From the NCBI GenBank assembly GCA_016931135.1, contig JAFGFK010000009.1:1-42117 (forward strand): a stretch of 42,117 bases of DNA, given 5' to 3'. The translations under genes were made by a program, and so were the position numbers. Shown here piece by piece: positions 9,444-38,311 of the stretch. The notes beneath the pieces were generated by a model. It did no database searches. It was not told the origin of the DNA and saw nothing but the letters and a program-made list of their open reading frames with translations. This DNA is from Candidatus Sumerlaeota bacterium. GTDB taxonomy: Bacteria > Sumerlaeota > Sumerlaeia > MWCT01. Position 1 is the first letter of the stretch; each line of letters opens with the position of its first letter.

Positions 9444-10817
9444 ATGGCTGCCATGAATCAAAACGAGCCGGTGATTATATATTTTTCAGCAGGGCAATGG
9501 CGTCCGCCCCTTCCTGTAGGAGAACTTCGCTATCCCATTTACCTGATTGCTCGAAGGCGTCACGTCCTGTATGTCAATCCGCCGGCAAGTTTACTGGATC
9601 GGCTTTCCGGAAAAAGACGCCGGCGCATACATCCCCCCCCGGATTCCCATCAGAGCGTTCCCGGAACAAAAATGACCGTATTCACTCCTTCCGTGGTCTT
9701 TCCCTATTCCGTGAGACTCCCCATGCCCCTGTTCCTGAAAAACATGATCTTAAACAGGAACATTCAAAGCATTACTTCACAGGTTCTGAACATTTTTCAT
9801 ACTCTTTATCCGGGAAGGGAAAAACCGGATATGGCGTGGGGAACGATTTTCCATCATGCGGGAATTCTGGAGAGATTTCCCGCGCGTCATAAACTGGCGA
9901 TTATCGACGATAATTTTCCGGAAAGCCCGGCGTTCACTCCTTTTCAAAAAAATGAAGTGGCGGAAATGGAGCGCTCCCTGATTTCTTCCGCCGAATATAT
10001 CTTCACGACATCCCGCACCCTTTTCGAGGAAAAAGCAAGGATCAATCCCCATTGCGTGATGATGGAAAACGGGGTATCCGACCTGTTTCTCCCGGAAAAC
10101 AGAGAACATCTTGACGGATTTGCGCATCAATGCCCGCAACAGGAACATAACATCATCGAGCAAATCAAAAGTCTTCCCAAACCCAGGATCGGCTACGTTG
10201 GTGCCTTGAATATAAGGCTTTGGAGGGATTTTCTCGAGGAAATTTTCAAAGCAGCCTCCGGATATCAACTGGTATTCATCGGAAATATCGATGATTCCTT
10301 TCCAATCTCTATGATCGAAAAAATGAAAAATCCGAACATTCATGTCTTTCCCTATATCTCCCATGCGTTGATCCCTTATGCCCTTGAACAGTTCGATTTG
10401 CTTGTTCTCCCCTTTGAATTGACCCGGTTTTCAAGGTTCATCAATCCCCTGAAACTGAGCGAATATCTATCGAGCGGGAAGCCGATTCTCGCAACGCCTC
10501 TGGTAGAAATCAAACGAATAGCGGGAGATTCCCGGGGCATGGTTTATTTTATCGAAAATCCCAAAGATATAAAACATTCCATCGAAAAGGCGTTACGGGA
10601 AGATTCTACAGAGATGAGAGAACGCCGGATCGCCCTCGCGCGCGCCCGCACCTGGCAACGCGTCACCCGCGAGATGCTCTCCCTCGTGGAAACAATCCTG
10701 AAGTCAGACCGGTCAGACTCATCAGACTCATCAGACCCGTCAGACTCATCAGACCGGTCAGACTTGTCTGACTTGTCTGACAAAAATAACCATTCCACTC
10801 CAAGGAAAATCTCATGA
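9444..10817 (+). CDS. Glycosyltransferase (TuaH/GT4-like) with a repeat-encoded SDSSDSSDPSDSSDRSD tail
   Basis: KPRIGYVGALNIRLWRDFLEEIFKAASGYQLVFIGNIDD...PLKLSEYLSSGKPILATPLVEIKRI; ATG at 9444 is in frame with the longer TTG ORF from 9417. Confidence 0.75.
   Translation: MAAMNQNEPVIIYFSAGQWRPPLPVGELRYPIYLIARRRHVLYVNPPASLLDRLSGKRRRRIHPPPDSHQSVPGTKMTVFTPSVVFPYSVRLPMPLFLKNMILNRNIQSITSQVLNIFHTLYPGREKPDMAWGTIFHHAGILERFPARHKLAIIDDNFPESPAFTPFQKNEVAEMERSLISSAEYIFTTSRTLFEEKARINPHCVMMENGVSDLFLPENREHLDGFAHQCPQQEHNIIEQIKSLPKPRIGYVGALNIRLWRDFLEEIFKAASGYQLVFIGNIDDSFPISMIEKMKNPNIHVFPYISHALIPYALEQFDLLVLPFELTRFSRFINPLKLSEYLSSGKPILATPLVEIKRIAGDSRGMVYFIENPKDIKHSIEKALREDSTEMRERRIALARARTWQRVTREMLSLVETILKSDRSDSSDSSDPSDSSDRSDLSDLSDKNNHSTPRKIS
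10703..10781. repeat. 9-bp tandem array TCAGACNNN (7 units) switching to TCTGACNNN (2 units)
   Basis: Direct reading: tcagaccgg tcagactca tcagactca tcagacccg tcagactca tcagaccgg tcagacttg tctgacttg tctgac. Confidence 0.95.
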
Positions 10818-11506
10818 ACGATAGCGACACTCCCCTTCTCCCCCACGGGGGTTATCGGCGTCTTCGCAGTTACAAGGTGGCTGAGGCAATCTATGACGCT
10901 ACGGTAGTATTCTGCAGGCGTTTTTATCCTCATGACCGTAGAATGTCCGATCAGATGATCCAGGCGGCGCGCAGCGGCGTCCGTAACATCAGTGAAGGCA
11001 GCGGCGCTGCAGCCACTTCGCGAAAGACCGAGATGAAACTCACCAATGTCGCGCGCGCCAGTCTCAATGACGAACTGCTGCGCGATTATGAAACTTTTCT
11101 TCGTCAGAATAGCATGCGCATCTGGCAAAAGGATTCACGCGAGGCGCGCGCCATGCGCAAAAGGCTATACGAGGATAATGCGCAGAAGACGCCGCCTCCA
11201 CAACCAGGCAGAATTCGTTTGACCGGGCTTTCCGGATTGGCTGATTTTGTCTCCAGGGCGGAACCGGAACTGGCTGGTAACGCCATGATATGCGCCGTGA
11301 ATCAGGCAGTCTATCTTCTGAAACGCCAGATAGAAAGCCAGGCGCGGATATTTCAGAAGGAAGGGGGATTTACGGAGAGCCTCTACAGACATCGCCAGGA
11401 AGCGCGTTCCAGAGATCAAAAGCCCCACGCTCCCGAGCATTCTGATCAGTCAGACCAGTCAGACCGGTCTGACCAGTCTGACAGGTCTGACCAGCATTCT
11501 GATTAA
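10814..11506 (+). CDS. Four-helix-bundle (S23/IVP-like, four helix bundle suffix-type) protein ending in SDQSDRSD repeats
   Basis: SYKVAEAIYDATVVFCRRFYPHDRRMSDQMIQAARSGVRNISEGSGAAATSRKTEMKLTNVARASLNDELLRDYETFL has the typical S23/IVP helices; suffix region NAMICAVNQAVYLLKRQIESQARIFQKEGGFTESL. Confidence 0.85.
   Translation: MNDSDTPLLPHGGYRRLRSYKVAEAIYDATVVFCRRFYPHDRRMSDQMIQAARSGVRNISEGSGAAATSRKTEMKLTNVARASLNDELLRDYETFLRQNSMRIWQKDSREARAMRKRLYEDNAQKTPPPQPGRIRLTGLSGLADFVSRAEPELAGNAMICAVNQAVYLLKRQIESQARIFQKEGGFTESLYRHRQEARSRDQKPHAPEHSDQSDQSDRSDQSDRSDQHSD
11441..11503. repeat. Second TCAGAC/TCTGAC 9-bp array, with a 16-bp perfect palindrome GTCAGACCGGTCTGAC
   Basis: Direct reading: tctgatcag tcagaccag tcagaccgg tctgaccag tctgacagg tctgaccag cattctgat; arms continue beyond the palindrome after a 2-nt mismatch. 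Confidence 0.95.
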
Positions 11507-18562: not shown

Positions 18563-18859
18563 ATGTTAATGGGAAAAGTTGTTGGTACGGTTATCTCCAC
18601 TCAAAAGGATCCGGGTCTTCAAGGTTACAAGCTCTTCGTAGTTCAATGCGTCGATGTTTCAATGAAACCGACTTCGAGTTATGTAATTGCGGTTGACGCC
18701 ATTGGTTGCGGGGAAGATGAGATGGTGATCGTGGTTCAGGGAAGTTCCGCCCGCATCACCGAACGCACCAAGAACAAACCCGTTGACGCAGCTATAATCG
18801 CCATTGTTGATTCCGTGGAAGTGGGGAAAAACCGGGTTTATGAAAAGTACAAACAATAA
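18563..18859 (+). CDS. Bacterial microcompartment vertex (BMC-P, EutN/CcmL family) protein 1
   Basis: MGKVVGTVISTQKDPGLQGYKLFVVQCVD...GCGEDEMVIVVQGSSAR...KNKPVDAAIIAIVDSVEV. Confidence 0.93.
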   Translation: MLMGKVVGTVISTQKDPGLQGYKLFVVQCVDVSMKPTSSYVIAVDAIGCGEDEMVIVVQGSSARITERTKNKPVDAAIIAIVDSVEVGKNRVYEKYKQ

Positions 18860-18948
18860 ACATTCGTTACGCCAGGTAAAACGATTACTATAAAGAACAT
18901 GATCACAACCATGAACACAAAGACGAATCGAGACAAAGGGTAACCGCG

Positions 18949-19239
18949 ATGGATATCGCAAAAGTCATGGGAACTATCGTCGCAACGCAGAAGGACCCCT
19001 CATTAAGCGGGGTAAAGATATGTATCATTCAACCTCTGGATCAGGATCTCAAGGAAAAAGGGAAACCTCTTGTTGCAACGGATTCTACCTCGATGCGAGA
19101 TACAGGGGAAATTGTTTATTATGTTGCGAGCGGCGATGCGGTATCAACAGGGACAGAGGGACAGAAAATGCCTGTTGACGCTGCGATAGTGGGGATAATC
19201 GACCACATCCATTATAAAAAGGAGTATCTGCCCGGTTAA
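18949..19239 (+). CDS. Bacterial microcompartment vertex (BMC-P, EutN/CcmL family) protein 2
   Basis: AKVMGTIVATQKDPSLSGVKICIIQPLD...TGEIVYYVASGDAV...QKMPVDAAIVGIIDHI. Confidence 0.93.
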   Translation: MDIAKVMGTIVATQKDPSLSGVKICIIQPLDQDLKEKGKPLVATDSTSMRDTGEIVYYVASGDAVSTGTEGQKMPVDAAIVGIIDHIHYKKEYLPG

Positions 19240-19242
19240 GCC

Positions 19243-19575
19243 ATGCAATTCGGAATTGTCATTGGGAACGTTATTTCAACGGATAAAAATCCGGCATACG
19301 AAGAGCGCAAGCTGCTTTTGGTGCAGAGGTTGAGCCTGGATAACAGGGCTATGGGAATCCCCACCATGGCGATCGATTATGTAGGGGCGGGAGAAGGGGA
19401 TATTGTATTATTAGGCGCGGCGCCGGGGCTCGCCTCCACGGTTTTCGGCATCCCGGACGCCCCCATCCGCGAACTTGTTATGGGAGTGATCGATCGCGCC
19501 CGATTCTCTACAGGGCAAAAAGAGTTCGGAAACAGCGTTTCGGAAAGGCATGAAAAAAACCGAAATAACACTTGA
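19243..19575 (+). CDS. Bacterial microcompartment vertex (BMC-P, EutN/CcmL family) protein 3, divergent
   Basis: FGIVIGNVISTDKNPAYEERKLLLVQRLS...VGAGEGDIVLLGAAPGLAS...APIRELVMGVIDRARF. Confidence 0.9.
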   Translation: MQFGIVIGNVISTDKNPAYEERKLLLVQRLSLDNRAMGIPTMAIDYVGAGEGDIVLLGAAPGLASTVFGIPDAPIRELVMGVIDRARFSTGQKEFGNSVSERHEKNRNNT

Positions 19576-19690: not shown

Positions 19691-19984
19691 GTGCCCAATA
19701 AGAAAGCCCAAATCAAGCATGCGCGTCAGAGTAAAAAGCGCAATCTGGAAAACAGGAAAATCAAAGCCGCCCTTTATACCAACATCAGGAAAGTGAGAAA
19801 GATAATCGAGGGGGGAAGTCTCGGAGAAGTGAAGGCTAACTTACCCGCAACGCTGAAAACAATCAACAAATCGGCGCAGAAGGGCATTATTCACAAACGC
19901 AAAGCTGCGCGCCTCCAATCCCGCATGGTGAAAAACGCCAATAAACTCGCCAAAACCCCGGATTCCACGCCGAAAACCACATAA
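19691..19984 (+). CDS. rpsT: 30S ribosomal protein S20
   Basis: MPNKKAQIKHARQSKKRNLENRKIKAALYTNIRK...KGIIHKRKAARLQSRMVKNANK; GTG start after GGAGGAAG. Confidence 0.95.
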   Translation: MPNKKAQIKHARQSKKRNLENRKIKAALYTNIRKVRKIIEGGSLGEVKANLPATLKTINKSAQKGIIHKRKAARLQSRMVKNANKLAKTPDSTPKTT

Positions 19985-23061: not shown

Positions 23062-23697
23062 ATGGAACCGGAAAAAAACAATCTGAGGTATGTGCCGAAA
23101 TCCGTAATCAAGCGCCTTGCCCTTTATTGCAGGATCCTTCACCGGATAGAAATGGACGGACTCACGCGCATCTCATCAAAGATTCTGGCGCAATTTCTGG
23201 GAATCACGCCTGCCCAGGTGAGAAAAGACCTGGCATATTTCGGGCAATTCGGAGTCCCGGGTTTCGGTTATAATCCCCATGATCTGCGCATCCATTTAAA
23301 AAAAATACTGGGAACGGATCGCATCATCAATCTGGCGATCATTGGCGTGGGCAACCTGGGAAAGGCTCTTCTTTCTTATGTTGGATTCAAAACTCAGGGA
23401 TTCAAGTTCATCGCCGCCTTCGATCTGGATCAGCGAAAAGTGGGACGGAAGATCAATGAATTGAAAGTATCCAGTATAAATGAACTTGAGAAAATTCTCA
23501 AAGACAGCGATGTGGATATTGTGGTATTAACGGTTCCGGCAAACGCCGCCCAGGAAGTAGTGGATCGTCTTGTGAAATGCAATATCACGGCGATACTGAA
23601 TTTCGCCCCTATACGGATCGATGTCCCTTCCCATGTAAGAATTCATTCCGTAGATCTCGCGATGGAACTGGAACGACTCAGTTTTTACCTGCGTTAA
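23062..23697 (+). CDS. rex: Redox-sensing transcriptional repressor Rex
   Basis: Winged helix SSKILAQFLGITPAQVRKDLAYFGQFGVPGFGYN plus Rossmann motif IIGVGNLGKALLSYVGF. Confidence 0.95.
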   Translation: MEPEKNNLRYVPKSVIKRLALYCRILHRIEMDGLTRISSKILAQFLGITPAQVRKDLAYFGQFGVPGFGYNPHDLRIHLKKILGTDRIINLAIIGVGNLGKALLSYVGFKTQGFKFIAAFDLDQRKVGRKINELKVSSINELEKILKDSDVDIVVLTVPANAAQEVVDRLVKCNITAILNFAPIRIDVPSHVRIHSVDLAMELERLSFYLR

Positions 23698-34052: not shown

Positions 34053-34204
34053 TTCCAATTGAAATTTACCTTTGATTATAACTGTCTCTTGCGTGATTTT
34101 TTTTGAAATACTTGTTTGACAATTGATTTTGATTTGCTATCCATAATATGTCCTATTTGATGGGATTTGCTTGATTTTCCGCAAAATAAATTGGAGGAGT
34201 GAAC

Positions 34205-37200
34205 ATGAACCGAAAAAAATTTGCCGTAAGCATGCATTTCTTCCTCTTTGCCTTTTCTCTCATGATAATATTCAACCCGGCTCGGATCGACGCGGGCTCA
34301 GTCATTGTGTATGTGGATATCAATTCCCCGGCGGGAGCGCCAACTGGATCTTCCTGGGATATGGCTTACAAGAGCATTCAGATCGCTATCATGAATTCGA
34401 GTATCGGGCAGGAAATATGGGTGGCGAACGGCGTTTATCACGAACGGATTTCCCTGGGCGCATCGGATAAACTGTACGGGGGATTCGAGGGATACGGCGG
34501 TCTCGAAGAAACCCAGAGAACCCAGAGAGACTGGACAAAAAACATCTCTATCATAAACGGGACTCTGTTCAATGGAGTGGGATTATCGAAAGAAATCAAG
34601 GGCGTTGCCAATCTTCACACTGTAACCATGGATGGATCGACAACATGCGCCCTGGATGGTTTTACCATAACAGGTGGAGCAGCGGGTAGTGAGCCTCCCA
34701 ACAACATGGGGGGAGGAATCTATTGCAACGGCATAAATAACGCCAACACGATTGCCAATTGCGTCATTGAAAACAATTTTTCAGAATACGGAGGCGGGAT
34801 GGCGTTTATCAACGCATCTCCGGTAGTAACCAATTGCGTCATTTCAGAAAATGAAGCCGGATCCGAAGGCGGCGGAATATATATTTATGATAATTCCAGC
34901 CCGGTTTTCTGGAATTGCAGCATCGGGAACAATATATGCGATTTTACAGGGGGAGGCGTTTATGCGGAGTCATCCTCAACCACATTCACCAATTGCCTGA
35001 TCTTCAATAATGAGGCATACGACAGTTGTGGAGCAGGATTTTTCTGGATGGGCTCCTGTCTAGGTTTGATCAATTGCTCTATTAGCGGAAATTCATCGCC
35101 TGACTTCGGTGGCTTATATACGGATTCAATCGACCAATTGAATATAGTCAACGCCATTTTCCATCAAAATAACGATATTGCCCTTACATCTTATTTTTCT
35201 AATCTGATCCTGTCCAATTGCCTGTTTTACGGAAATCCCAATAGCGCCATATACCACCAAATCTATGGATTCTATGATGATGAGGAGGTCGATAACTTCA
35301 ACGCCGATATCCCCGGCGCCCAGGATAATATAACAGGCGATCCCCAGTTTGTGGATTGGGAAGGCGGTGATCTCCGAATCATGTCTTGTTCCGCAGCGGT
35401 AGATCAAGGGACATGGATCGGCGCGCCCGCCAAGGATATCGACGGCATGAATCGTCCCAAAGACATCCCTGGAATCGGGGCTGATGGAACGCACACGGAA
35501 TACGATATCGGCGCCTATGAGGTTCAAGACATGCTTCGCCTGGATGTCTATCCTCCGGTATTGAAATTAAACCAAGCCATCAACCAGGGCGCTATTATCA
35601 AACCTGTGATCCTTGCCAATATCGGAATCGGGTCCATCGAGTTTACAACCATTACCCTCTCCGGTTCGCTCGATTTCTCCTTTGCCGATCTTCCCGATAT
35701 GGATAGCCTTCCTGTTTGTTCCAGGCGTGAAGCGTTCATTTCCTTCGATCCCTCGAGCATAGGATTGATCACAGGAACGCTTACTGTGGAAAGCAACGAT
35801 TTGATCAATCCCGAAACCAAGGTATCCCTCGAGGGAAATGGAACCAACGAACGCCCTCTCGCCGGGCAGTATCATACGGGAGGAGCCCTTGATTTTCAGG
35901 ATATAAACGATCGGGTGATCATACCGGATTTCAATAATTTCCCAATCGGAGCCATGACCGTTGAGTTTTGGATGAGGAGTTCCTCCTCCAATGCCGGCAT
36001 CTTATCCTACGCTGCGGAATCCCCGGGATCGCCTAATGAATTTTATATTTTCGACCAATCGAGTCTCGTTATTGCGATAGGCAACGCCGCCGTTGACACG
36101 GATGTTGCGGTCAATGATGACAAGTGGCATCATATCGCCGTAACCTGGGATAGTAATCTGGGAGATCTCAGGCTTTATGTAGATTATGACATGGCTTATA
36201 AAGGAACGCTTAGACCGGGTTATGCTATACAGGGAAACGGGACCCTGGCGTTTGCCGAGGAACAGGATGCGGTGGGAGGCGGTTTCGATCCGAACCAGGC
36301 TTATATCGGATGGCTGGATGAGGTTCGAATCTGGAATAATGTTCGAATCATAGACCATATATTCGGTTTCATGCATGAGGAACTCTATGGGAATGAGACA
36401 AACCTCGTTGGTTACTGGAAATTCAACAATGTCAGAAACTCCCATGTAGAAGACAGCTCGGGTGATGGGAATCACGGAACAATACAGGGCAGCCCCCACT
36501 GGTTGACGCCCTCCCCGGCTGATATTGTCAACAAGAACGCCACAGTGGGAGCGAATATTGACAGGGATACGGTATTCACCCTTTCCGGCTTCGATCTTGA
36601 TGGGGACATTCTGACAGCGTCGCTGACCCTGCTTCCCTTTACAGGTCAATTATACCAGTATGACAATGGATCTCGCGGAACAGCCATTAATTCTGTTCCC
36701 ACAGTAGTATCTGATTCTCAAAACCGGGTGATTTACGCGCCCCCTGCGCCCGGAAAGATGAAAACCGCAGTCAATAATCTGCAATATAAAGTAAACGATG
36801 GATTCCAGGAATCCATCAATGCAGCCAACCTGAATTGGGAATTTTCCGATCGGGAGATCGAGGTAAGCGGCGGCGCCCATAATTTCGGTTTGGGACTAAT
36901 CGGAGAACCTCCCGATCACACGCACCTGATCACCATCACGAACGACGGAACAACTACGCTGACTTTTTACGGAAACGAAGTGGAACTGATTGGAGCCAAT
37001 CCGGAGGACTTCATCATTTCGAGCGATACGGAAGAATCGGCGCTTGCATCAGGGCAAAGCCGCGAAGTCGAGATATCCTTCGCTCCCCAAACCAAAGGAA
37101 TGAAAACGTCAAAACTGCATATCTCGAGCGATGATCTGGATGAACCGGTCGTTGAAATCGGATTACTGGGTTTCGGCGATACGCGCCCTCTTGCGGGCAA

Positions 37201-38311
37201 ACTTTCCGCAGGATACGCCCTCGATTTCACCAAAGTGGAAGATCGCGTGATCATCAACGATATCGCCAATCTCTCAACAGACAGTTTGACCGTATCCTGC
37301 TGGTTGAAAAGCGGAGAATCCGGAGATGGCGTCATATCCTATGCGGTTCCGAAAAATGATAACGAGATTCTGATATATAACCAGGCGAACCTTGATTTAT
37401 ATATACATAATAAGCATATCGTTACGGGAGTGTCCTTTAACGATAACGACTGGCATCATCTGGCGGTAACCTGGCAAAGCCTGGATGGCTGGGTTAACGT
37501 TTACAAGGATGGCGATCTGGCGGCGACAGGCACCTTGGCTATGGGATCGAGCCTTAAAAACGGCGGCGTCCTGGTTTTTGGCGAGGATCAGGACTTCATG
37601 GGAGGAGGATTTCAAACAGGACAGGCTTATATCGGCGACTTGGATGAAGTCAGAATCTGGAACAAGGTCAGAACCCGTGAAGAAATCCTGGAAGACATGA
37701 ATCGCGAACTCACAGGCGATGAATCCGGGCTCGTGGGATACTGGAGCCTCAACGAAGGCGCAGGCGCTACGGCATACGATTCGACATCCAACAACAAAAA
37801 CGGGGCTCTTTCGGGATATCCCGCATGGATTCACTCTTTTGCCATGAAGGGAATTATTCACAATTTCCATATCTTTGCCCCGAATGATGAAGACACCACC
37901 ATCACCCTTTGTGGCATAGATGGTGATTGGGATGTTCTCAAGGCGATCATTACCAACATCCCGCCCGAACAAAAAGGGGAACTGTATCAACTGGCAGCCC
38001 CGGGACCTGTTCGCGGCGCAAAGATCACGACTATCGATACAGAGCTGACGGATCCCGAAATGCGCCTCGTATTCGCCCCCAATTCAACTTCAGATGGTTT
38101 TACAGCCATCATCGGATGGAAGGTGAACGACAACTTGGTCAATTCCAACAATATCGGCAATTATGCGGTTACGGTGAATGCCACCCAGATCATTCTTGAT
38201 TATCTATTGGGCAAGACATTGCTTCTTCCTCTTCAGAGAGAGATACTGGATTTGAACGGAGACGGGACCGTGGATATCGCCGATGTGATTACGTATTACA
38301 TGCTGAATTGA
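34205..38311 (+). CDS. Large secreted modular protein: right-handed beta-helix, then two copies of [choice-of-anchor-D-like + LamG-like + cadherin-like spacer], then a C-terminal dockerin-like segment
   Basis: Signal peptide; beta-helix region GGGIYCNGINNANTIANCVIENN...; LamG motifs DDKWHHIAVTWD and DNDWHHLAVTWQ with WLDEVRIWNNVR/DLDEVRIWNKVR; C-terminus LDLNGDGTVDIADVITYYMLN. GGAGGA precedes the ATG at 34205. Confidence 0.85.
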   Translation: MNRKKFAVSMHFFLFAFSLMIIFNPARIDAGSVIVYVDINSPAGAPTGSSWDMAYKSIQIAIMNSSIGQEIWVANGVYHERISLGASDKLYGGFEGYGGLEETQRTQRDWTKNISIINGTLFNGVGLSKEIKGVANLHTVTMDGSTTCALDGFTITGGAAGSEPPNNMGGGIYCNGINNANTIANCVIENNFSEYGGGMAFINASPVVTNCVISENEAGSEGGGIYIYDNSSPVFWNCSIGNNICDFTGGGVYAESSSTTFTNCLIFNNEAYDSCGAGFFWMGSCLGLINCSISGNSSPDFGGLYTDSIDQLNIVNAIFHQNNDIALTSYFSNLILSNCLFYGNPNSAIYHQIYGFYDDEEVDNFNADIPGAQDNITGDPQFVDWEGGDLRIMSCSAAVDQGTWIGAPAKDIDGMNRPKDIPGIGADGTHTEYDIGAYEVQDMLRLDVYPPVLKLNQAINQGAIIKPVILANIGIGSIEFTTITLSGSLDFSFADLPDMDSLPVCSRREAFISFDPSSIGLITGTLTVESNDLINPETKVSLEGNGTNERPLAGQYHTGGALDFQDINDRVIIPDFNNFPIGAMTVEFWMRSSSSNAGILSYAAESPGSPNEFYIFDQSSLVIAIGNAAVDTDVAVNDDKWHHIAVTWDSNLGDLRLYVDYDMAYKGTLRPGYAIQGNGTLAFAEEQDAVGGGFDPNQAYIGWLDEVRIWNNVRIIDHIFGFMHEELYGNETNLVGYWKFNNVRNSHVEDSSGDGNHGTIQGSPHWLTPSPADIVNKNATVGANIDRDTVFTLSGFDLDGDILTASLTLLPFTGQLYQYDNGSRGTAINSVPTVVSDSQNRVIYAPPAPGKMKTAVNNLQYKVNDGFQESINAANLNWEFSDREIEVSGGAHNFGLGLIGEPPDHTHLITITNDGTTTLTFYGNEVELIGANPEDFIISSDTEESALASGQSREVEISFAPQTKGMKTSKLHISSDDLDEPVVEIGLLGFGDTRPLAGKLSAGYALDFTKVEDRVIINDIANLSTDSLTVSCWLKSGESGDGVISYAVPKNDNEILIYNQANLDLYIHNKHIVTGVSFNDNDWHHLAVTWQSLDGWVNVYKDGDLAATGTLAMGSSLKNGGVLVFGEDQDFMGGGFQTGQAYIGDLDEVRIWNKVRTREEILEDMNRELTGDESGLVGYWSLNEGAGATAYDSTSNNKNGALSGYPAWIHSFAMKGIIHNFHIFAPNDEDTTITLCGIDGDWDVLKAIITNIPPEQKGELYQLAAPGPVRGAKITTIDTELTDPEMRLVFAPNSTSDGFTAIIGWKVNDNLVNSNNIGNYAVTVNATQIILDYLLGKTLLLPLQREILDLNGDGTVDIADVITYYMLN

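What the first reader, a model, noticed from the sequence alone, without database searches (positions are those of the whole stretch)
18563..19575. Three consecutive BMC-P (EutN/CcmL) vertex genes with no BMC-H/T shell or cargo enzymes nearby
Three divergent pentamer-family genes lie in a row, followed immediately by rpsT. No hexameric shell gene, aldehyde dehydrogenase, signature enzyme or regulator occurs anywhere in the window. Established: BMC loci usually combine BMC-H, BMC-T and BMC-P; some types carry three different pentamers, and satellite loci exist. Inference: either a satellite of a microcompartment encoded elsewhere, or a pentamer-only assembly beside housekeeping genes.
Basis: partly seen in the sequence, partly recalled or inferred. 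Interest (0 to 1): 0.7.

Follow-up and report, generated by a model that had tools for sequence, protein, structure and literature searches.

The report
Scattered microcompartment: its three vertex genes
These three neighbouring genes make the corner pieces of a protein-shelled bacterial organelle whose other shell and enzyme genes are scattered around the same genome; this scattered kind is already known, but tagged enzymes found here give a testable guess at what it does (breaking down sugar phosphates to an aldehyde).

Summary
Three divergent BMC-P genes (18563-18859, 18949-19239, 19243-19575) lie in a row before rpsT, with no other shell or cargo gene in the window. They are the only BMC-P genes in this 4.66 Mb Sumerlaeota (BRC1) draft genome. 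Two BMC-H genes and one tandem BMC-T gene lie on three other contigs. Cargo candidates lie elsewhere too: an AldDh-PduL-AckA-RnfC run leading into BMC-T (split between two contigs), and a class II aldolase with a C-terminal encapsulation-peptide-like helix. A pentamer-only assembly is therefore rejected. "Satellite" is right in spirit, but no main locus holding both H and P exists. This is the known FRAG kind of dispersed microcompartment, marked by a BMC-P triplet. Across the class, the triplet forms three orthologous clades, one copy per genome, and in a closed genome all six shell genes are apart. New here: 20 of 21 shell-bearing relatives carry the aldolase tag, against 0 of 13 without shells, with repeated joint changes on the aldolase tree. 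Best reading: a dispersed aldolase metabolosome with PVM-type chemistry; fuculose- or rhamnulose-phosphate is likely in this genome but not shown. The rpsT adjacency is a family-level accident of position.

The parts
18563..18859 (+). BMC-P subtype 1 (P1), 98 aa vertex pentamer protein
   Evidence: Pfam EutN_CcmL 103 bits; nearest solved structure is the Haliangium ochraceum shell pentamer 5v74, E 2e-23; P1 clade has one copy per shell-bearing relative
18949..19239 (+). BMC-P subtype 2 (P2), 96 aa
   Evidence: Pfam EutN_CcmL 80 bits; own orthologous clade of 22 rows; paired with P3 in Poribacteria
19243..19575 (+). BMC-P subtype 3 (P3), 110 aa, with a short low-confidence C-terminal tail
   Evidence: Pfam EutN_CcmL 66 bits; AF2 pLDDT 82, fold match to CcmL/EutN/GrpN; P3 clade; starts 3 bases after the P2 stop codon
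19691..19984 (+). rpsT (30S ribosomal protein S20); neighbour, not part of the organelle
   Evidence: Pfam/NCBIfam S20; next to the triplet only in the three genomes of its own family

Best explanation
The three genes encode the three vertex-pentamer subtypes of one bacterial microcompartment whose shell and cargo genes are dispersed over the genome of a Candidatus Sumerlaeota bacterium (a FRAG-type BMC). Shown by sequence: P1+P2+P3 here; BMC-H1 (contig C170); BMC-H2 (C251); an AldDh-PduL-AckA-RnfC-BMC-T run split between contigs C245 and C179; and a class II aldolase with a C-terminal encapsulation-peptide-like helix (C411). AldDh and PduL carry N-terminal helices of the same kind. Inferred working: a phosphorylated sugar (in this genome most likely L-fuculose-1-P or L-rhamnulose-1-P) is cleaved by the encapsulated aldolase to DHAP plus a short aldehyde (lactaldehyde); AldDh converts the aldehyde to an acyl-CoA with NADH; PduL and AckA yield acyl-phosphate and then ATP; the RnfC-like protein next to BMC-T helps re-oxidise NADH. 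BMC-H and BMC-T form the facets and the three pentamers cap the vertices. Cargo reaches the shell through its peptide tags, so gene linkage is not needed. The contiguity of P1-P2-P3 and their place before rpsT are local gene order, not function.
For: Shell genes in own genome. PduL, aldolase and AldDh in own genome; helices read from sequence; families (PduL 255 bits, over its cut-off; AldDh in subfamily NF011927 at 616 bits; EutM-like BMC-H). C245 ends inside AckA and C179 begins inside AckA, and G002 has PduL-AckA-RnfC-T contiguous. Co-occurrence: BMC-P in 26 of 41 genomes and PF00936 in 25 of the same 26 and in no other; PduL in 16 of the 26 and in none of the 15 without. Aldolase tail: helix motif in 20/21 shell-bearing and 0/13 shell-less genomes (Fisher 1.5e-8; 0/9 with close orthologues, 7e-7); shuffled tails give 0.7 of 21 on average, maximum 4. 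On the aldolase tree the tail changes 7 times; the 3 independent pairs on well-supported branches go the same way as the shell, including G034 versus G038 of one genus. AldDh N-terminal helix visible in most shell-bearing genomes examined. Two class relatives have the same chemistry in one compact locus: DeoR, H, H, PduL, AckA, H, P, AldDh, P, P, tagged aldolase, Ldh, matching the described PVM components (PMC4207490). RhaA and an L-fucose isomerase homologue are in the own genome, and a rhamnulokinase gene lies close to BMC-T.
Against: No expression, protein or microscopy data. The genome is an 88.8% complete draft of 523 contigs, so the own-genome dispersal rests partly on contig breaks (the two BMC-H genes sit at contig ends); closed G007 and conserved family neighbourhoods answer this for relatives. 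The helix pattern was written after seeing the tails, and related genomes are not independent; 3 pairs alone cannot reach significance. G004 has the shell but an untagged aldolase. RhaA is missing from most shell-bearing relatives, and both isomerase families from G007, so fucose/rhamnose cannot be the substrate in all. PduL was not found in 10 shell-bearing genomes, including closed G007. The aldolase falls below every NCBIfam equivalog cut-off, so its substrate is not fixed.
Confidence: 0.75

Rival explanations
1. The dispersed shell is real, but its substrate is another aldehyde-yielding compound: the tagged class II aldolase acts on a different sugar phosphate (for example one yielding glycolaldehyde), or the main input is an imported aldehyde or diol.
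For: RhaA and FucI-type isomerases are absent from many shell-bearing relatives, both from G007. The aldolase is below all equivalog cut-offs; its best NCBIfam score is to 3-oxo-tetronate 4-phosphate decarboxylase, then FucA-type models. Poribacteria with a related dispersed shell show no tagged class II aldolase, and 1,2-propanediol was proposed for them (PMC5087111).
Against: The own genome has RhaA, rhamnulokinase and a FucI homologue. Nearest solved relatives include several L-fuculose phosphate aldolases. Aldolase orthologues of G018 and G026 lie beside a fucose-isomerase-family gene. Two class relatives have a PVM-like locus with the homologous aldolase.
Confidence: 0.35
2. A pentamer-only assembly unrelated to a closed shell.
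For: No BMC-H or BMC-T in the window.
Against: H and T genes are in the same genome; 25 of 26 BMC-P-bearing relatives also have PF00936 and none of the 15 without BMC-P does. The single exception, G036, is an 80% complete draft.
Confidence: 0.02
3. A relic: leftover vertex genes of a degraded microcompartment.
For: Isolated position beside housekeeping genes; no cargo nearby.
Against: All three ORFs are intact and conserved at 65-78% identity in the two family relatives with gene order kept; one orthologue of each subtype is kept in nearly every shell-bearing genome; H, T and tagged enzymes are all intact apart from the contig break in AckA.
Confidence: 0.04
4. A binning artefact: contig C200 belongs to another organism.
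For: Estimated contamination 4.85%.
Against: The two family relatives share the same neighbourhood (triplet, rpsT, galT, pit; with the radical SAM gene in one), and the shell genes of this genome on the other contigs also have their closest relatives and shared neighbours in the same two genomes.
Confidence: 0.02

Closest known systems
FRAG bacterial microcompartments (FRAG1-7; Sutter et al. 2021, PMC8217296)
   Same: Shell genes in several genomic places (4 loci here, up to 6 in relatives), a BMC-P triplet, shell genes remote from enzymes, candidate phyla.
   Different: The paper lists FRAG among types with no obvious signature enzyme; here a tagged class II aldolase is identified. Subtype (1-7) could not be assigned without the reference trees.
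PVM microcompartment (Planctomycetes/Verrucomicrobia; fucose and rhamnose)
   Same: Class II aldolase with AldDh, PduL and acetate kinase; [quoted passage not shown]
   Different: PVM is one compact locus with a DeoR regulator and an Ldh-family gene; here genes are dispersed and a tandem BMC-T and an RnfC-like gene are present. A compact PVM-like form occurs in two class relatives, G012 and G034.
Dispersed shell genes of Poribacteria and 'satellite-like' loci of Poribacteria and BRC1 (PMC3909097, PMC5087111, PMC4207490)
   Same: Three BMC-P and two BMC-H genes scattered over the chromosome; P2 and P3 orthologues adjacent.
   Different: No BMC-T found in the eight Poribacteria genomes searched and no tagged class II aldolase among the C-termini read; P1 separate from P2-P3.
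HO microcompartment of Haliangium ochraceum
   Same: BMC-P triplet; best solved match of P1 is its pentamer.
   Different: The literature gives HO three BMC-T and one BMC-H (PMC4207490); here one BMC-T and two BMC-H.

Membership tests
BMC-P / EutN_CcmL vertex proteins | PF03319 domain over full length | tested here: met
   103, 80 and 66 bits against a cut-off of 25
BMC-P / EutN_CcmL vertex proteins | Fold of the pentamer subunit | tested here: met
   P3 model matches CcmL/EutN/GrpN at probability 1.00, TMt about 0.8; P1 and P2 not modelled
BMC-P / EutN_CcmL vertex proteins | Pentamer assembly at shell vertices | not testable with these tools
   Needs purified protein and EM
FRAG BMC | Shell genes in several genomic places without a defined locus | tested here: met
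   Four loci in this draft, six in single-contig G007
FRAG BMC | BMC-P triplet of three distinct subtypes | tested here: met
   Three clades, one copy per genome for most shell-bearing genomes
FRAG BMC | Triplet drawn from the published gray, orange and a third BMC-P clade | not tested
FRAG BMC | Shell genes remote from known enzymes | tested here: met
   No metabolosome enzyme in the 42 kb window; only BMC-T is beside enzymes
[quoted passage not shown]
   All BMC-P are in the window, all PF00936 genes on other contigs; a break inside one locus cannot be wholly excluded, but family relatives show the same separation
PVM BMC | Class II aldolase signature enzyme | tested here: met
   C411 3703-4488, PF00596 169 bits, with an encapsulation-peptide-like tail (statistics)
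PVM BMC | AldDh, PduL and acetate kinase | tested here: met
   C245 and C179; acetate kinase recognised from its sequence and by similarity to the Pfam-confirmed AckA of G012
PVM BMC | One locus with DeoR regulator and lactate/malate dehydrogenase gene | tested here: not met
   Genes dispersed; neither gene was recognised beside the shell loci read; both are in the compact locus of G012
PVM BMC | Degradation of L-fucose and L-rhamnose | tested here: inconclusive
   RhaA, RhaB and a FucI homologue in this genome, isomerases absent from many shell-bearing relatives
HO BMC | Three BMC-T and one BMC-H | tested here: not met
   One BMC-T and two BMC-H

The most novel reading that the evidence does not exclude
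The FRAG-type dispersed microcompartment of Sumerlaeota is a deoxysugar-aldolase (lactaldehyde) metabolosome. This would be the first functional assignment of a FRAG organelle, and an organelle kept together only by encapsulation tags, with the tag repeatedly lost from the aldolase when the unlinked shell genes are lost.
Probability: 0.5. Interest if true: 0.65.

Novelty: new member of a known kind. Interest (0 to 1): 0.5.

Why it matters
FRAG microcompartments were described in 2021 as enigmatic, grouped by shell proteins alone and lacking an obvious signature enzyme. Linking a dispersed shell to a tagged aldolase, by co-occurrence across unlinked genes, gives a substrate class and a direct experiment. 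It also suggests how to find cargo of scattered organelles in other uncultured phyla: look for tails that come and go with the shell rather than for neighbouring genes. I could not read the catalogue's supplements, so part of this may already be tabulated there.

Tried and rejected
(1) Pentamer-only assembly: rejected by the genome-wide BMC-H/T hits and co-occurrence. (2) Functional link to rpsT: the adjacency is confined to the own family (3 genomes); orthologous triplets elsewhere have other neighbours. (3) Rex control (a rex gene lies at 23062): no Rex-like operator near the triplet; four weak sites in the window against 2.85 expected by chance. (4) Terminator or promoter evidence for a separate P1-P2-P3 transcript: uninformative. 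(5) Structured RNA in the window: no Rfam match. (6) Extending the tagged-aldolase idea to Poribacteria: the Poribacteria genomes searched have only weak class II aldolase hits; the five C-termini read have no such helix (the script stopped after these). (8) Alignment of P2 for a second structure prediction failed on a wrong frame and was dropped, as the Pfam score left no doubt.

Full report
What is there. The window holds three consecutive genes on the + strand, here called P1 (18563-18859), P2 (18949-19239) and P3 (19243-19575), followed by rpsT at 19691. Each is a full-length EutN_CcmL protein (103, 80 and 66 bits against a cut-off of 25). They are only distantly alike: P1 matches the Haliangium shell pentamer best (E 2e-23), while P2 and P3 match solved pentamers more weakly. 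A model of P3 has the fold of CcmL, EutN and GrpN. No RNA family, Rex operator or terminator adds anything.

The rest of the organelle is in the same genome, elsewhere. The window is contig C200 of a 4.66 Mb draft (523 contigs, 88.8% complete). A whole-genome search finds no other BMC-P gene, two BMC-H genes on C170 and C251, and one tandem BMC-T gene on C179. BMC-T follows an RnfC-like gene and the end of an acetate kinase gene. Contig C245 ends inside an acetate kinase gene after an aldehyde dehydrogenase and PduL. In family relative G002 PduL, AckA, RnfC and BMC-T are contiguous, so C245 and C179 are most likely one run: AldDh-PduL-AckA-RnfC-T (inference). A class II aldolase lies on C411. 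AldDh and PduL start with amphipathic helices followed by linkers (NENQIRGVVEQVLKKM; DPQYIRKIVEQVVSELA) and the aldolase ends with one (RSDIENVVRQVLQEKGLL): these look like encapsulation peptides (established knowledge of BMC cargo).

Which organism. Orthologues of P3 found in named genomes are best in Candidatus Sumerlaeota (BRC1), then in many Poribacteria and one Omnitrophota draft. The two family relatives are Sumerlaeota drafts and keep the order P1-P2-P3, rpsT, galT, pit, with the upstream radical SAM gene also seen in one of them. Outside the family rpsT is not next to the triplet, so the ribosomal neighbour is incidental.

Dispersal is a property of the lineage. Of 41 genomes searched (mostly of the class), 26 have BMC-P, nearly always three copies, and 25 of the same 26 have PF00936; none has PF00936 without BMC-P. 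A tree of all copies gives three clades with one copy per genome in each for most genomes. Counting loci more than 10 kb apart or on other contigs, most have 3 to 6 shell loci; in single-contig G007 all six shell genes are apart. Only G012 and G034 have a single compact locus. In eight Poribacteria genomes, most of them single chromosomes, there are three BMC-P and two BMC-H genes in four places.

Cargo. PduL occurs in 16 of 26 shell-bearing genomes and in none of 15 without. Aldolase orthologues exist with and without the shell, which allows a test: the C-terminal helix motif is present in 20 of 21 shell-bearing genomes with a complete gene and in 0 of 13 without (0 of 9 counting close orthologues only); shuffled tails give 0.7 of 21 on average. 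The motif was written after seeing the tails. On the aldolase tree the tail changes seven times; three independent pairs on well-supported branches all go with the shell, one of them within a genus (G034 with, G038 without). Since the aldolase gene is unlinked to the shell in most of these genomes, this is good evidence that it is cargo. G004 is an exception (shell, no tail).

How it likely works. The compact locus of G012 is DeoR, BMC-H, BMC-H, PduL, AckA, BMC-H, BMC-P, AldDh, BMC-P, BMC-P, tagged aldolase, Ldh. These are the parts given for the PVM organelle, which degrades fucose and rhamnose through lactaldehyde (PMC4207490). The dispersed system has the same enzyme core. In this genome rhamnose isomerase, rhamnulokinase and an L-fucose isomerase homologue are present, so fuculose- or rhamnulose-phosphate is the likely input here. 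The isomerases are missing from many shell-bearing relatives, including G007, so the substrate step is the least certain part.

What is known. Sutter et al. 2021 (PMC8217296) define FRAG BMCs: shell genes in up to six places, a BMC-P triplet, many candidate phyla, no obvious signature enzyme. Axen et al. 2014 (PMC4207490) already noted satellite-like loci in Poribacteria and BRC1. Kamke 2014 and Jahn 2016 described dispersed shell genes in Poribacteria, found them expressed, and proposed propanediol use. A 2021 paper on Sumerlaeota does not mention compartments. So the triplet is a new member of a known kind. The aldolase assignment is, as far as the papers held here show, new; supplements were not readable.

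Verdict. Observation confirmed; interpretation partly supported (satellite-like yes, pentamer-only no, rpsT link no). Interest 0.5: ordinary as a shell find, but it makes the function of a FRAG organelle testable.

Noticed in passing
L061:1459-2397 (-), L060:417-1355 (-), L062:1453-2340 (-), L192:8006-8887 (+): Single ORFs of about 293-312 aa hold three BMC (PF00936) domains in a row, each scoring about 100 bits with a model of this genome's BMC-H proteins. In G028, G032 and G035 this is the only PF00936 gene found. Known tandem BMC proteins are two-domain fusions (PMC8217296); two such chains could form a pseudohexamer. No literature found in two searches.
   Followed up: partly
L009:2689-3507 (-), beside BMC-H2; relatives L088, L092, L097, L100: A 272-aa protein of no Pfam family is conserved near BMC-H2 in many relatives; weak NCBIfam match to TIGR02536 ethanolamine utilization protein. 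Possibly an unrecognised BMC component.
   Followed up: partly
L094 (G012) and L103 (G034): Two class relatives carry a compact PVM-like BMC locus with divergent shell proteins instead of the dispersed set, but with a homologous tagged aldolase.
   Followed up: partly
L210, L213, L225 and other Poribacteria loci: P2 and P3 orthologues are adjacent in nearly all Poribacteria loci, P1 elsewhere, and no BMC-T was found in eight genomes searched.
   Followed up: partly
window 34199-38311; L008 1-2781 and 2852-5419: Very large predicted surface or secreted proteins; those at window 34199-38311 and L008 2852-5419 end in a dockerin-like motif (DLNGDGTVDIADVITYYML / DLNNDGIVDIADLITMIM).
   Followed up: no
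window 10700-11500: Repeated SDQSDRSD-type coding stretches at the ends of two neighbouring ORFs (a 466-aa and a 230-aa ORF), suggesting a short DNA repeat here.
   Followed up: no
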